A DNA stretch of 38,877 nucleotides from the NCBI GenBank assembly GCA_019923605.1, contig JAHXGM010000004.1, forward strand, positions 1 to 38,877. The letters run 5' to 3'. Under the pieces are notes generated by a model. The model saw only the letters and a list, made by a program, of their open reading frames with translations. It did no database searches and was not told where the DNA came from. This DNA is from Candidatus Nealsonbacteria bacterium (GTDB lineage Bacteria; Patescibacteriota; Minisyncoccia; Minisyncoccales; CSSED10-335). The position numbers and the translations under genes were made by a program. Shown here piece after piece: positions 20,035 to 23,399 of this stretch. How positions within the stretch are numbered: position 1 is the first letter of the stretch; the number at the start of each line of letters is the position of its first letter.

Positions 20035-20061
20035 TTATGTATAGTTCTTTTTTCTCCCCAT
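20035..20061 (-). other. Tiny ORF behind a perfect SD, perhaps a frameshifted basic peptide
   Basis: AAAGGAGGTG (minus strand, about 20067-20076) is followed 9 nt after GGAGG by ATG and eight codons, MGRKKNYT. If one A is removed from the A-run after GGGGAG, the frame opens to 22 residues, MGRKRTIHKPFKEKRKPP then IKRT, very basic and protein-like, ending just before the stem-loop at 19983-20004. It could be a leader peptide, a broken small gene, or an assembly indel. There is no promoter of its own; it would be read from the 20333-20361 promoter. Confidence 0.3.
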
Positions 20062-20118
20062 CCTATAACACCTCCTTTGATAATAAGGCATCAATAATTG
20101 TAAATATTTTTAAACTAA

Positions 20119-20310
20119 CTAAACTTTAATTTGATCCCAAACAATTTTAAAAATATATACTCCGGGAACAATAAATAGAACCCAAAGAATTAATATTATG
20201 TTTTGGAAAAATATTGGCCAATATTGGGCTATAATTATTCCAAACGAAACTATTGATAATTCATATAAAGACAACTGCCATTCTTTAAAGCTTATTGTTT
20301 TTGATAACAT
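20119..20310 (-). CDS. Small two-pass membrane protein, unknown
   Basis: 63 residues. After MLSKTISFKEWQLSLYEL come two hydrophobic stretches (about 18-35 and 38-56) and a short VWDQIKV tail. No family is recognised. It has its own promoter (20333-20361), and its transcript continues into the region with the SD at about 20070. Confidence 0.5.
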   Translation of the reverse strand: MLSKTISFKEWQLSLYELSIVSFGIIIAQYWPIFFQNIILILWVLFIVPGVYIFKIVWDQIKV

Positions 20311-20332
20311 TTTATTAAAAGTTATTTTCCTT

Positions 20333-20361
20333 ATTATACATTGATGGTGGTTTTAAGGCAA
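20333..20361 (-). promoter_or_regulatory. Promoter of the 63-residue gene
   Basis: TTGCCT (20356-20361), a 17-bp spacer and TATAAT (20333-20338) on the minus strand. The -35 overlaps the end of the T-run of the terminator at 20360-20392, so the two units are packed back to back. Confidence 0.55.
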
Positions 20362-20392
20362 AAAAAAGAGAGGGTTATTTTAAACCCTCTTT
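20360..20392 (-). terminator. Strong intrinsic terminator of the 37-codon gene
   Basis: On the minus strand GAGGGTT and AACCCTC form a perfect stem, extendable to 10 bp, with a 6-nt loop, followed by a run of seven to eight T. The stop codon of the small gene lies inside the hairpin loop. Confidence 0.9.
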
Positions 20393-20493
20393 GAAAACTT
20401 GCGGAGCAACAAAAAAGAAACTGTCGACAGGACGCTAGCTATTCCCGTAGCAGAAAACGCTACGAGAACAGTCCCGTACAAACTTTTTTTCAT
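20380..20493 (-). CDS. 37-residue membrane peptide with consensus expression signals
   Basis: The peptide starts MKKSLYGTVLVAFSATGIAS, continues as a hydrophobic stretch (VLSTVSFLLL) and ends in the basic tail RKFSKRV. It is one predicted membrane segment with positive charge at both ends. GGAGG (20501-20505) lies 7 nt before the ATG inside AAAGGAGGTGAG, an ideal SD in a window where SDs are rare. A perfect promoter lies upstream and a strong terminator overlaps the stop. Codons such as CTC, GTC, CTG, TCG, GCG and CGC are unlike its A+T-rich neighbours. It could be a small toxin-like, bacteriocin-like or regulatory membrane peptide; no known family is recognised. Confidence 0.75.
   Translation of the reverse strand: MKKSLYGTVLVAFSATGIASVLSTVSFLLLRKFSKRV
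20440..20470 (-). other. Strong RNA hairpin inside the 37-codon reading frame
   Basis: In the minus-strand RNA, UGUUCUCGUAGC and GCUACGGGAAUA pair over 12 bp around a 7-nt loop (GUUUUCU). Two of the pairs are G-U, which would be A-C mismatches on the other strand, so the structure belongs to this transcript. Flanking GGAC and GUCC can extend the fold. Confidence 0.6.
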
Positions 20494-20524
20494 CAACTCA
20501 CCTCCTTTCTTTCAAAGATGAGTA

Positions 20525-20553
20525 ATTATAAAATATGTTAACATTTTTGTCAA
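20525..20553 (-). promoter_or_regulatory. Perfect consensus sigma-70 promoter
   Basis: TTGACA (20548-20553), a spacer of exactly 17 bp, and TATAAT (20525-20530) on the minus strand, 12 of 12 consensus bases. The predicted start is near 20518, giving a transcript of about 160 nt to the terminator with a 25-nt leader carrying the SD. Confidence 0.9.
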
Positions 20554-20573
20554 GGCAAAAAGGTAATGTATAC

Positions 20574-20622
20574 ACACATATGGCGGATTCTGCCGAGAAA
20601 AGTATAATCTCGGTATATGTGT
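20574..20622 (+). repeat. Nested inverted repeat over the IS481-type transposase promoter
   Basis: ACACATAT (20574-20581) is repeated inverted as ATATGTGT (20615-20622). Nested inside, CCGAGA (20593-20598) pairs with TCTCGG (20608-20613). The probable transposase -10, TATAAT (20603-20608), lies in the inner loop, so the structure may limit transposase expression or be bound by it. TGTATACACAC (from about 20568) may be the left end of the element, since IS481-family ends usually begin TGT. Confidence 0.5.
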
Positions 20623-20628
20623 ACAAAT

Positions 20629-21564
20629 ATGCCAAAAACAATAAAAGAGGAAAGATTAAGATGGATACTTCCCATCTATAACAAAGAAGTAAGTATTACG
20701 AACGTCGCCAAAATATGTCTCTACGGTAAAAGAACATTGGAAAGGTGGCTGCATGATTACAAGATATACGGAGAGCAAGGATTGGAACCAAAGTCCACCA
20801 GGCCTAAAACAAATCCTAAAGAAACGCCCATCAGGATTAAGGAAAGAATAATTGAATCAAGAAAAGAGAAGAAACAGTGTGCCTTAAAAATAATGTGGGA
20901 CTTGGAGGAAGAAGGCATAAACATCCATTATCAAACAGTACAGAAGATAATTAAGAAAGAAGGATTAACCAGAAGATACCGAATAAGGAAGATTAGATAC
21001 AAGTATGTTAGAATACCTTTAAAGAGGGGCGAGCTGGTAGAGATTGATGTCAAATATGTCCCAGATAAGATAAAGAAACAGAGATATTATCAGTTTACAG
21101 CTATAGATTGCGGCTCGAGGTGGAGGTATCTACAAGCATATGAGGACGTATCCAATCTCAGTGCAATAAAGTTTTTGAAAGAACTAATTTCTATTACTGA
21201 CTTTGAAATTAAAGCAATTAAAACAGATAATGGATCTTGTTTTACCAATCGGTATACAGGCTACAATAAAAGCACAGACCCCCTGAATCCGAGACTGCAT
21301 CCTTTTGATATACTATGCCAGGAATTGGACATACCTCATTATTTGATTGACCCAGGCAAACCTCAACAAAATAGTTTCGTAGAACGTTCTCATAAGACAG
21401 ACCAAGAAAAATTCTATGATGAAACTGAATTTAAGTCTTTTGAGGATCTAAGATATAAGTTAAGGCTGTGGAATATGGAGTACAACGATACAAAACATTG
21501 CGGACTTAATGGAAAAACACCCAATGAAAAGCTTCAATTAAAAGTGTTAAAAGTGGTTAGTTAA
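20629..21564 (+). CDS. IS481-family transposase
   Basis: About 311 residues from the ATG at 20629 (MPKTIKEERLRWILPIYNKE); an ATG four codons upstream is possible. An N-terminal HTH (VAKICLYGKRTLERWLHDYK) is followed by ARPKTNPKE-like linker text and a DDE integrase core: Asp in ELVEIDVKYV, Asp in IKTDNGSCF, Glu in NSFVERSHKT. All three catalytic residues are present, so it may be active. No right-hand inverted repeat is found: the stop overlaps the convergent dxs stop by 4 nt and the dxs coding end looks normal. The element is therefore truncated, very compact, or no longer mobile. Confidence 0.85.
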   Translation: MPKTIKEERLRWILPIYNKEVSITNVAKICLYGKRTLERWLHDYKIYGEQGLEPKSTRPKTNPKETPIRIKERIIESRKEKKQCALKIMWDLEEEGINIHYQTVQKIIKKEGLTRRYRIRKIRYKYVRIPLKRGELVEIDVKYVPDKIKKQRYYQFTAIDCGSRWRYLQAYEDVSNLSAIKFLKELISITDFEIKAIKTDNGSCFTNRYTGYNKSTDPLNPRLHPFDILCQELDIPHYLIDPGKPQQNSFVERSHKTDQEKFYDETEFKSFEDLRYKLRLWNMEYNDTKHCGLNGKTPNEKLQLKVLKVVS

Positions 21565-23399
21565 AACACTAAAAGATCTTCAACAGTCTTAACTATACCA
21601 TCTGCACTGATACCATAATTATCTTTTAGTAAAAACTGGGGACCATGCTCCACAAATTCATCAGGTATTCCAATCATCTTTAAATCAACCTGTATTTTAC
21701 TATTGGATAAATGAGTTAATACAGAGGAACCAAAGCCTCCTCTTAATACTCCTTCTTCCACAGTGACTATCTTGCCAATACTATTTCCAACCTTTTCTAT
21801 TATTTCAAAATCAAGCGGCTTAATAAATCTTGCATTAATCACCATTGAATCAATTCCCTTTTTTTGAAGTATTTCAGCTGCTTTAAGCGAGGGGTAAACT
21901 GTATTGCCAACTGCAAGAATGGCAACATCTTTTCCTTCTCCAAAAGATTCCCATTTCCCAACCTTTATCTCATCTCTTTGGTAGCACATGCTCTCCATTT
22001 TCTCTCTTGGGTATCTTATCGCAACTGGAGAATCACATTTTACAGCAAGTCTCATCATTTCCTTTAACTCTTCGGTATCTTTTGGAGACATGAATATTAA
22101 GTTAGGAATATTGGAAAGAAAAGAAATGTCAAAAACACCGTGATGAGTCGGACCATCTTCTCCAACTAAACCAGCTCTATCTATCGCAAAGATAACTGGA
22201 AGATTTTGAAGACAAACATCATGAATAATTTGATCATATGATCGCTGAAGGAATGTGGAGTAAAGTGCAACAACCGGTTTTATACCTCTAGTTGCTAGTC
22301 CAGCCGCAAAAGTAACTGCATGAGATTCAGCAATACCAACATCATAAAATCTATCGGGAAACTTTTCAGCAAACTCAACAAGACCCGTTCCCTCTTTCAT
22401 GGCTGCTGTTATTGCTACTATATTTTCATCCTTTTCTGCTAACTCAATCATTGAATCACCAAAAGTATCACTAAAAGATACACAACCCTTTTTTGTAGAA
22501 GAACATTGAATACCTGTCTTAACAACAAATGGCCCCATAGCATGATAGGTGCAGGGATCATTTTCAGAGAATTTATATCCCTTTCCTTTCTTAGTTACAA
22601 TATGTACCAAAGTCAGCTTATTACCATCTCTGGCTTTCTTTAAAGTTTCTATTAATAGGGTAATATTGTGACCATCAATTGGTTGAATGTACTCAAAACC
22701 AAGGTCTTCAAACAATCCGCCTGGCATAAAAATATTCTTAGGCGAATCCCTTTTTTTGGTAATTATTTCTATATCCTCTCGTATTTTTAATAATTCTTGT
22801 GAAATGTTTTTATAAAAAGTTCCTGTGATAACTTTACTTAAATAAGAGGAAAGTGCTCCAACATTTTTAGAGATGGACATTTCATTGTTATTCAAAATAA
22901 CAATTAAATCCTTACCGAGATGACCCGCTTGATTTAATCCTTCGAATGCAAGCCCTGAAGTTAATGCCCCATCACCTATAACAGCAATAACCTTTCCCCC
23001 GTCTCCTTTAAGATCTCGTCCTACTAAACTTCCAAGAGCAGCTGATATCGATGTTGAGCTATGACCAGTTCCAAAGGAGTCATGTTCACTCTCTGATATC
23101 TTTGGAAAACCGGATATACCCTTATTTCTTCTTAAAGTATGAAATTTATCGTATCTTCCTGTTAAAAGTTTATGAGGATATGATTGATGACCTACATCCC
23201 AAATTATCTTATCTTTTGGTGAATCAAAAACATAATGTAAGGCAACAGCTAATTCAACCACCCCCAAATTAGAAGCAAGGTGTCCCCCATTTTCAGAAAC
23301 TCTTTTAATAATTACATCTCTTAATTCTTCAGATAGATCTCCCAACTCTTTATTATTTAACAATTTCAAATCATTTGGAGATTTTATTCTTTCAATCAT
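21561..23399 (-). CDS. dxs: 1-deoxy-D-xylulose-5-phosphate synthase
   Basis: About 612 residues. A thiamine-diphosphate enzyme making DXP from pyruvate and glyceraldehyde 3-phosphate, the first MEP-pathway step. It is read from the ATG at 23399 (MIERIKSPNDLKLL); an in-frame TTG four codons upstream is less likely. His40 (GGHLASNLGVVEL), the ThDP motif GDGALTSGLAFEGLN (142-156), the transketolase pyrimidine domain (VALYSTFLQRSYDQIIHDV), DRAGLVGEDGPTHHG and the C-terminal domain are complete. A TATAAT (23419-23424) overlaps the NIF3 stop. Pyruvate is supplied by pyk; the product would feed the prenyl synthase. Confidence 0.95.
   Translation of the reverse strand: MIERIKSPNDLKLLNNKELGDLSEELRDVIIKRVSENGGHLASNLGVVELAVALHYVFDSPKDKIIWDVGHQSYPHKLLTGRYDKFHTLRRNKGISGFPKISESEHDSFGTGHSSTSISAALGSLVGRDLKGDGGKVIAVIGDGALTSGLAFEGLNQAGHLGKDLIVILNNNEMSISKNVGALSSYLSKVITGTFYKNISQELLKIREDIEIITKKRDSPKNIFMPGGLFEDLGFEYIQPIDGHNITLLIETLKKARDGNKLTLVHIVTKKGKGYKFSENDPCTYHAMGPFVVKTGIQCSSTKKGCVSFSDTFGDSMIELAEKDENIVAITAAMKEGTGLVEFAEKFPDRFYDVGIAESHAVTFAAGLATRGIKPVVALYSTFLQRSYDQIIHDVCLQNLPVIFAIDRAGLVGEDGPTHHGVFDISFLSNIPNLIFMSPKDTEELKEMMRLAVKCDSPVAIRYPREKMESMCYQRDEIKVGKWESFGEGKDVAILAVGNTVYPSLKAAEILQKKGIDSMVINARFIKPLDFEIIEKVGNSIGKIVTVEEGVLRGGFGSSVLTHLSNSKIQVDLKMIGIPDEFVEHGPQFLLKDNYGISADGIVKTVEDLLVF

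What the first reader, a model, noticed from the sequence alone, without database searches (positions are those of the whole stretch)
20360..20553. Self-contained 37-codon membrane-peptide gene with perfect promoter, SD and terminator
In about 195 bp the minus strand carries a 12/12 consensus promoter (TTGACA-17-TATAAT), an ideal SD 7 nt before ATG, a 37-residue single-pass peptide with basic ends, a 12-bp hairpin inside the coding RNA and a strong terminator overlapping the stop. Neighbouring genes mostly lack SDs and have weak -35 boxes. Codon use is also more GC-rich. Foreign origin or very high expression is likely; the hairpin, with G-U pairs only on this strand, suggests the RNA itself matters. 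Toxin, bacteriocin-like or regulatory peptide roles are speculation.
Basis: partly seen in the sequence, partly recalled or inferred. Interest (0 to 1): 0.8.

Follow-up and report, generated by a model that had tools for sequence, protein, structure and literature searches.

The report
Orphan membrane-peptide gene beside promoter-targeting transposon
A very small bacterium carries a complete miniature gene for a 37-residue membrane peptide with no known relatives, and its unusually perfect promoter is where a transposon has landed that, in dozens of related genomes, sits exactly 8 bases upstream of such promoters.

Summary
The minus strand carries a 12/12 promoter, a 13-nt extended Shine-Dalgarno (SD), a 37-codon ORF and a terminator overlapping the stop. 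The 12/12 17-spaced promoter occurs twice in this 560-kb genome, and AGGAGGTG before ATG only twice, both at this locus. GC3 is 0.49 against 0.24 in neighbouring genes. The peptide is predicted to be one helix and has no relative in 247 same-order genomes, phages, plasmids, Pfam, NCBIfam or PHROGs.

Two additions change the reading. First, the unit belongs to a class: perfect promoter + SD + ATG recurs in 71 of 247 genomes (0 in controls), mostly in small, GC-raised genes, 22 of them membrane proteins of at most 100 aa. Second, the promoter is a transposon landing site. An IS481-type element (20562-21568) ends 8 nt from the -35. Of 68 distinct insertion sites from 39 genomes, 48 have TTGACA (5 of 6 or better) at exactly 8 nt (0.4 expected), and 34 of 37 exact ones have a -10 (23 of 69 background). 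4-bp target duplications and one empty site show that the promoter came first.

The RNA hairpin is not clearly beyond what the codons impose. Toxin function is untested and no antisense RNA was found. Promoter-directed insertion looks new.

The parts
20548..20553 (-). -35 box TTGACA of the peptide gene
   Evidence: one of two 12/12 17-spaced promoters in the genome
20525..20530 (-). -10 box TATAAT (spacing 17)
20498..20510 (-). extended Shine-Dalgarno AGAAAGGAGGTGA (13 nt of the canonical 16S 3'-end complement, from general knowledge)
   Evidence: sequence; AGGAGGTG+ATG occurs only twice in the genome; the 16S 3' end itself was not found in this assembly
20380..20493 (-). 37-codon ORF with stop, single-pass membrane peptide
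   Evidence: predicted single helix residues 6-36, mean pLDDT 84.9; no homologue
20439..20471 (-). hairpin inside the coding RNA
   Evidence: not clearly beyond synonymous-codon controls
20369..20390 (-). intrinsic terminator stem-loop containing the stop codon; U-run 20368-20361
20510..20518 (-). 5' end UCUUUGAAA, perfect 9-nt complement of 20396-20388 near the 3' end (possible 5'-3' closing interaction)
   Evidence: 0.6% of shuffles have 9 nt or more; chosen after inspection
20554..20561 (.). 8-nt spacer between transposon end and -35 box
   Evidence: spacer length fixed, sequence variable
20562..21568 (+). IS481-type insertion sequence, about 1007 bp: left end GGTAATGTATACACACATATGGCGG, right end ..TTAAAACA
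20617..21564 (+). transposase, 315 aa, HTH + rve integrase core
   Evidence: rve 1e-13; NCBIfam NF033577 transpos_IS481 E 3.4e-63, 213.8 bits against cut-off 224
20119..20310 (-). next gene downstream: 63-aa two-helix membrane protein found in other genomes of the order, not part of the unit
   Evidence: 26 of 247 genomes at E <= 0.01; contexts differ

Best explanation
The 195 bp are a complete, orphan micro-gene: a consensus sigma70-type promoter, a short leader with an extended SD, a 37-codon ORF and an intrinsic terminator that starts inside the last codons, giving an mRNA of about 160 nt. The product is most likely a single-pass cytoplasmic-membrane peptide with basic ends, made at high level unless repressed, acting at the membrane as a small effector or modulator. 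It belongs to a recurrent class of small, strong-signal, often GC-raised and often membrane-spanning orphan genes in this order of Patescibacteria-type bacteria. Its promoter stands out partly because an IS481-type element has inserted with its left end exactly 8 bp upstream of the -35; this element does so at promoters across the order. Shown from sequence: the layout, the class, the absence of homologues, and the fixed IS-promoter geometry. Inferred: transcription, translation, membrane location, horizontal origin. Unknown: what the peptide acts on.
For: Layout and rarity in the genome. GC3 outlier. Predicted single helix. Class: TTGACA-17-TATAAT..GGAGG..ATG about 105 sites in 71 of 247 genomes, 0 in reversed-pattern controls; 93 ORFs read, median 107 aa, 44 of at most 100 aa, 22 of those with a strong membrane segment, including 32-, 34-, 37-, 46- and 47-residue peptides; some pairs are conserved proteins (83% and 60% identity), so the class is coding; GC3 above neighbours 20 of 27, p = 8e-5. 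IS geometry: 48 of 68 distinct sites with TTGACA (5/6 or better) at offset 8, expected 0.42, binomial 5e-90; -10 in 34 of 37 against 23 of 69 (p = 3e-9) or 8 of 21 intergenic TTGACA sites (p = 2e-5); 4-bp duplications in five independent copies; empty site in G047.
Against: No homologue, so no conservation test of the frame. No transcript data. The ORF length alone could arise by chance. The class is defined by the same signals that were noticed first, so it shows recurrence, not function. The window's IS copy has no exact 4-bp duplication (AAAA against CTAA).
Confidence: 0.65

Rival explanations
1. Type I-like toxin unit: the peptide depolarises the membrane and is held silent by a folded mRNA and/or an antisense RNA.
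For: Small (<60 aa) hydrophobic membrane peptide with charged end, extended SD and possible 5'-3' closing, features listed for type I toxins in PMC8167048. 9-nt perfect 5'-3' complement, 0.6% in shuffles. Start codon about 90% paired in the full-length fold and open in most shorter nascent folds.
Against: No antisense promoter above background: the only + strand candidate (20301-20328) is 9/12, and such sites are as frequent as in shuffles. Occlusion not unusual against synonymous controls. No homology to known toxins.
Confidence: 0.2
2. The RNA is the product: a structured small RNA whose ORF is incidental.
For: Whole-transcript fold z = -5.5.
Against: Synonymous controls give P 0.036-0.083 for the coding part; no Rfam match, best L20_leader 20.7 bits against 58.7 needed; the SD-ATG-stop layout would be unexplained.
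Confidence: 0.08
3. Leader-peptide attenuator: the terminator overlaps the stop, so ribosome position decides read-through into the 63-aa membrane gene downstream.
For: Terminator stem begins in the last codons; next gene is co-directional and starts about 50 nt after the U-run.
Against: The 63-aa gene has its own 10/12 promoter at 20361-20333 and occurs elsewhere in other contexts; no run of regulatory codons in the peptide.
Confidence: 0.08
4. Secreted cationic peptide: residues 1-19 are a signal peptide (possible cut after TGIA) releasing an 18-residue peptide.
For: N-terminal MKK, hydrophobic core and an A/S junction; sequence inspection only.
Against: Hydrophobicity continues to residue 30, which favours a membrane anchor; predicted as one continuous helix.
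Confidence: 0.1

Closest known systems
Type I toxin peptides (Hok, TisB, BsrG/TxpA, Fst kinds)
   Same: Tiny hydrophobic single-pass peptide, basic end, very strong SD, compact folded mRNA with terminator
   Different: No antisense RNA found, no sequence relation, toxicity unknown
IS481 family insertion sequences
   Same: HTH + DDE transposase, about 1 kb, terminal inverted repeats, short target duplications (family range 2-15 bp, PMC10045372)
   Different: 4-bp duplications (most family members 6 bp) and a fixed landing place 8 bp upstream of host -35 boxes, which no paper found here reports
Ty3 retrotransposon integration upstream of RNA polymerase III genes (PMC8632968)
   Same: Works alike: integration in a narrow window upstream of promoters, sparing the gene
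   Different: Unrelated element and host; whether the bacterial transposase reads DNA or the RNA polymerase complex is unknown

Membership tests
Type I toxin-antitoxin | Hydrophobic membrane peptide under 60 aa | tested here: met
   (37 aa, hydrophobic core); predicted helix 6-36
Type I toxin-antitoxin | Antisense or base-pairing RNA antitoxin | tested here: inconclusive
   Only a 9/12 + strand promoter downstream, no more than chance; no expression data
Type I toxin-antitoxin | mRNA structure that hides the SD/start | tested here: inconclusive
   Start codon paired but not beyond synonymous controls; SD more open than 98% of controls
Type I toxin-antitoxin | Sequence membership of a known toxin family | tested here: not met
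   No Pfam, NCBIfam or PHROGs match at a significant level; PADLOC was not searched
Type I toxin-antitoxin | Toxicity on expression | not testable with these tools
   Needs an expression test
IS481 family | DDE (rve) transposase matching the IS481 model | tested here: inconclusive
   Best NCBIfam model IS481, E 3.4e-63 but 213.8 bits, just under the cut-off of 224; rve 1e-13
IS481 family | Terminal inverted repeats and target duplication of 2-15 bp | tested here: met
   Ends related across copies; 4-bp duplications in five independent copies; family range from PMC10045372
Strong-signal small orphan genes of this order (class defined here) | Perfect promoter, SD within 10-40 nt, short ORF | tested here: met

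The most novel reading that the evidence does not exclude
The IS481-type element recognises bacterial sigma70 promoters (their DNA sequence or the bound RNA polymerase) and integrates at one fixed distance upstream of the -35, a bacterial counterpart of Ty1/Ty3 safe-site integration. Because of this it marks the strongest promoters of these genomes, many of which drive an unrecognised population of orphan membrane micropeptides such as the one here.
Probability: 0.55. Interest if true: 0.8.

Novelty: new variant of a known kind. Interest (0 to 1): 0.6.

Why it matters
A transposon with base-exact promoter targeting would be a new kind of target choice for bacterial insertion sequences, and would give a natural map of strong promoters in bacteria that cannot be cultured. 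The class of small strong-signal orphan genes points to many unannotated membrane micropeptides in these reduced genomes.

Tried and rejected
Peptide homologues: candidates in G175, G204, G228, G137, G193, G139 and G074 were weak (E 0.016-0.5); those inspected did not share the promoter-SD-terminator layout and looked like fragments or antisense of longer frames. DNA search over 384 class genomes gave only short matches of about 20-50 nt, many at the generic SD-start region. The search for related loci refuses proteins under 48 aa. Rfam: nothing at gathering level; best weak hit L20_leader is mostly a poly-U/terminator match. RNA-gene reading rejected after synonymous controls. Idea that the IS carries the promoter in its end: rejected, because the duplications lie between IS and -35, spacer and -10 sequences vary, and an empty site exists. 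Idea that insertion follows the bare TTGACA motif plus selection against gene damage: weakened, not excluded (34/37 against 8/21 intergenic sites with a -10). Anti-SD check: the 16S 3' end was not found in the assembly.

Full report
Observation. The promoter at 20553-20525 (-) is the only 12/12 match among 55 promoter-like sites in 13 kb, and a genome-wide search found just two 17-spaced 12/12 sites in 560 kb. The leader contains AGAAAGGAGGTGA, then ATG at 20493. AGGAGG followed by ATG at SD spacing is barely above control in this genome (28 against 19), and AGGAGGTG before ATG occurs only twice, both here, at 20491 and 20059. The ORF encodes MKKSLYGTVLVAFSATGIASVLSTVSFLLLRKFSKRV. The terminator stem 20390-20369 begins in the last codons. 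GC3 is 0.49 against a mean of 0.24 for 19 neighbouring genes, outside all 1481 windows of 37 codons.

Is the RNA special? The transcript folds well against dinucleotide shuffles (z = -5.5), but that control ignores coding. With the peptide held constant, the coding part is only marginally more stable than its own codons permuted (P = 0.036) or GC3-matched synonymous codons (P = 0.083). Occlusion of the start codon is reached by 12% of permuted versions, and the SD is more open than in 98% of them. A perfect 9-nt complement between the 5' end (20518-20510) and 20396-20388 is rarer (0.6% of shuffles), but it was picked after inspection. An RNA-level function is therefore possible but not shown.

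Homology. The peptide has no relative in 247 genomes of the same order (the weak hits inspected were unconvincing), in phages or plasmids, or in Pfam, PHROGs or NCBIfam. AlphaFold predicts one helix, residues 6-36, mean pLDDT 84.9 from a single sequence.

A class of such genes. The exact layout TTGACA-17-TATAAT, SD and ATG occurs about 105 times in 71 of 247 genomes, with none in the reversed-pattern controls. Reading 93 distinct ORFs at these places gives a median of 107 aa; 44 have at most 100 aa, and 22 of these have a strong membrane segment, among them peptides of 32, 34, 37, 46 and 47 residues. Their GC3 exceeds that of neighbours in 20 of 27 loci (p = 8e-5), and a few pairs are conserved proteins. 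The window gene is thus an extreme but not isolated case. Whether the GC excess means horizontal origin or high expression is not resolved.

The transposon. The gene's promoter abuts an IS481-type element whose transposase lies at 20617-21564 (+). Comparing copies from related genomes fixed the ends: left end GGTAATGT.., right end ..TAAAACA, element length about 1 kb, and exact 4-bp target duplications in five independent copies. In the window the element is 20562-21568 and overlaps the last codons of the dxs gene, supplying its stop. A search for the left end found about 80 places in 39 of 247 genomes. Outside the left end, host DNA shows TTGACA at one position: 48 of 68 distinct sites have at least 5 of 6 matches at offset 8 (37 exact), 55 allowing offsets 7-9, while offsets further away have 0-1. 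The expectation at one offset is 0.42 sites (binomial 5e-90). A -10 box at 16-18 nt follows in 34 of 37 exact cases, against 23 of 69 TTGACA elsewhere in the same flanks and 8 of 21 intergenic ones (p = 3e-9 and 2e-5). The sequence logo shows TATAAT at the right place although sites were not selected for it. In G047, which has no left end by this search, the DNA matching the G153 insertion flank includes the promoter and the 8-nt spacer without a transposon. The promoters therefore pre-existed, and the element either targets them or survives only there. The right end of the G153 copy was not found, because several left ends are clustered there.

Mechanism and confidence. Most likely: strong constitutive or derepressible transcription, efficient initiation, a short message ending at the stop, and insertion of the peptide into the cytoplasmic membrane, where it acts as a small effector or modulator (0.65 for a real membrane-peptide gene of this kind; the target is unknown). 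The toxin reading has anatomical support but lacks the defining antisense RNA and any toxicity data (0.2). Overlap of terminator and stop alone would also fit an attenuator, but the downstream gene has its own promoter-like site and occurs elsewhere in other contexts.

Novelty. Literature searches in the open-access library found IS481 family facts (2-15 bp duplications, mostly 6) and Ty3-type promoter-proximal integration in yeast, but no report of a bacterial insertion sequence with a fixed offset to sigma70 -35 boxes, nor of the small-gene class in Patescibacteria. Subscription papers are not covered, so absence is weak evidence.

Noticed in passing
L059:1620-2420 (-): Two tandem cassettes with similar promoter, leader inverted repeat (CATGGCGGCGAAATGGACATCG) and near-identical terminators but unrelated small ORFs (24 and about 63 aa), next to an IS481 copy.
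   Followed up: partly
window 20059-20076 (-): Second strong SD (CAAAGGAGGTG) before an 8-codon ORF MGRKKNYT; the fold is not significant (z 0.2). It and the gene studied are the genome's only AGGAGGTG+ATG sites.
   Followed up: partly
window 21561-21568: The IS right end overlaps the end of dxs and supplies its stop codon, changing its last codons.
   Followed up: no
L005:1501-1529 (G000:C11:23199-23227 -): The genome's other 12/12 promoter lies just before a short gene whose start looks antitoxin-like (my reading, not searched).
   Followed up: no
window 20390-20369 and 24246-24227 (-): Two terminators, each beside a transposase, share the core GTTTAAAATAAC.
   Followed up: no
L321 (G153:C24:5400-7400): Three left ends of the IS within about 1 kb, possibly shortened non-autonomous copies.
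   Followed up: partly
G000: The canonical 16S 3' end TGGATCACCTCCTTTCT was not found with up to 2 mismatches, so anti-SD pairing could not be checked.
   Followed up: partly
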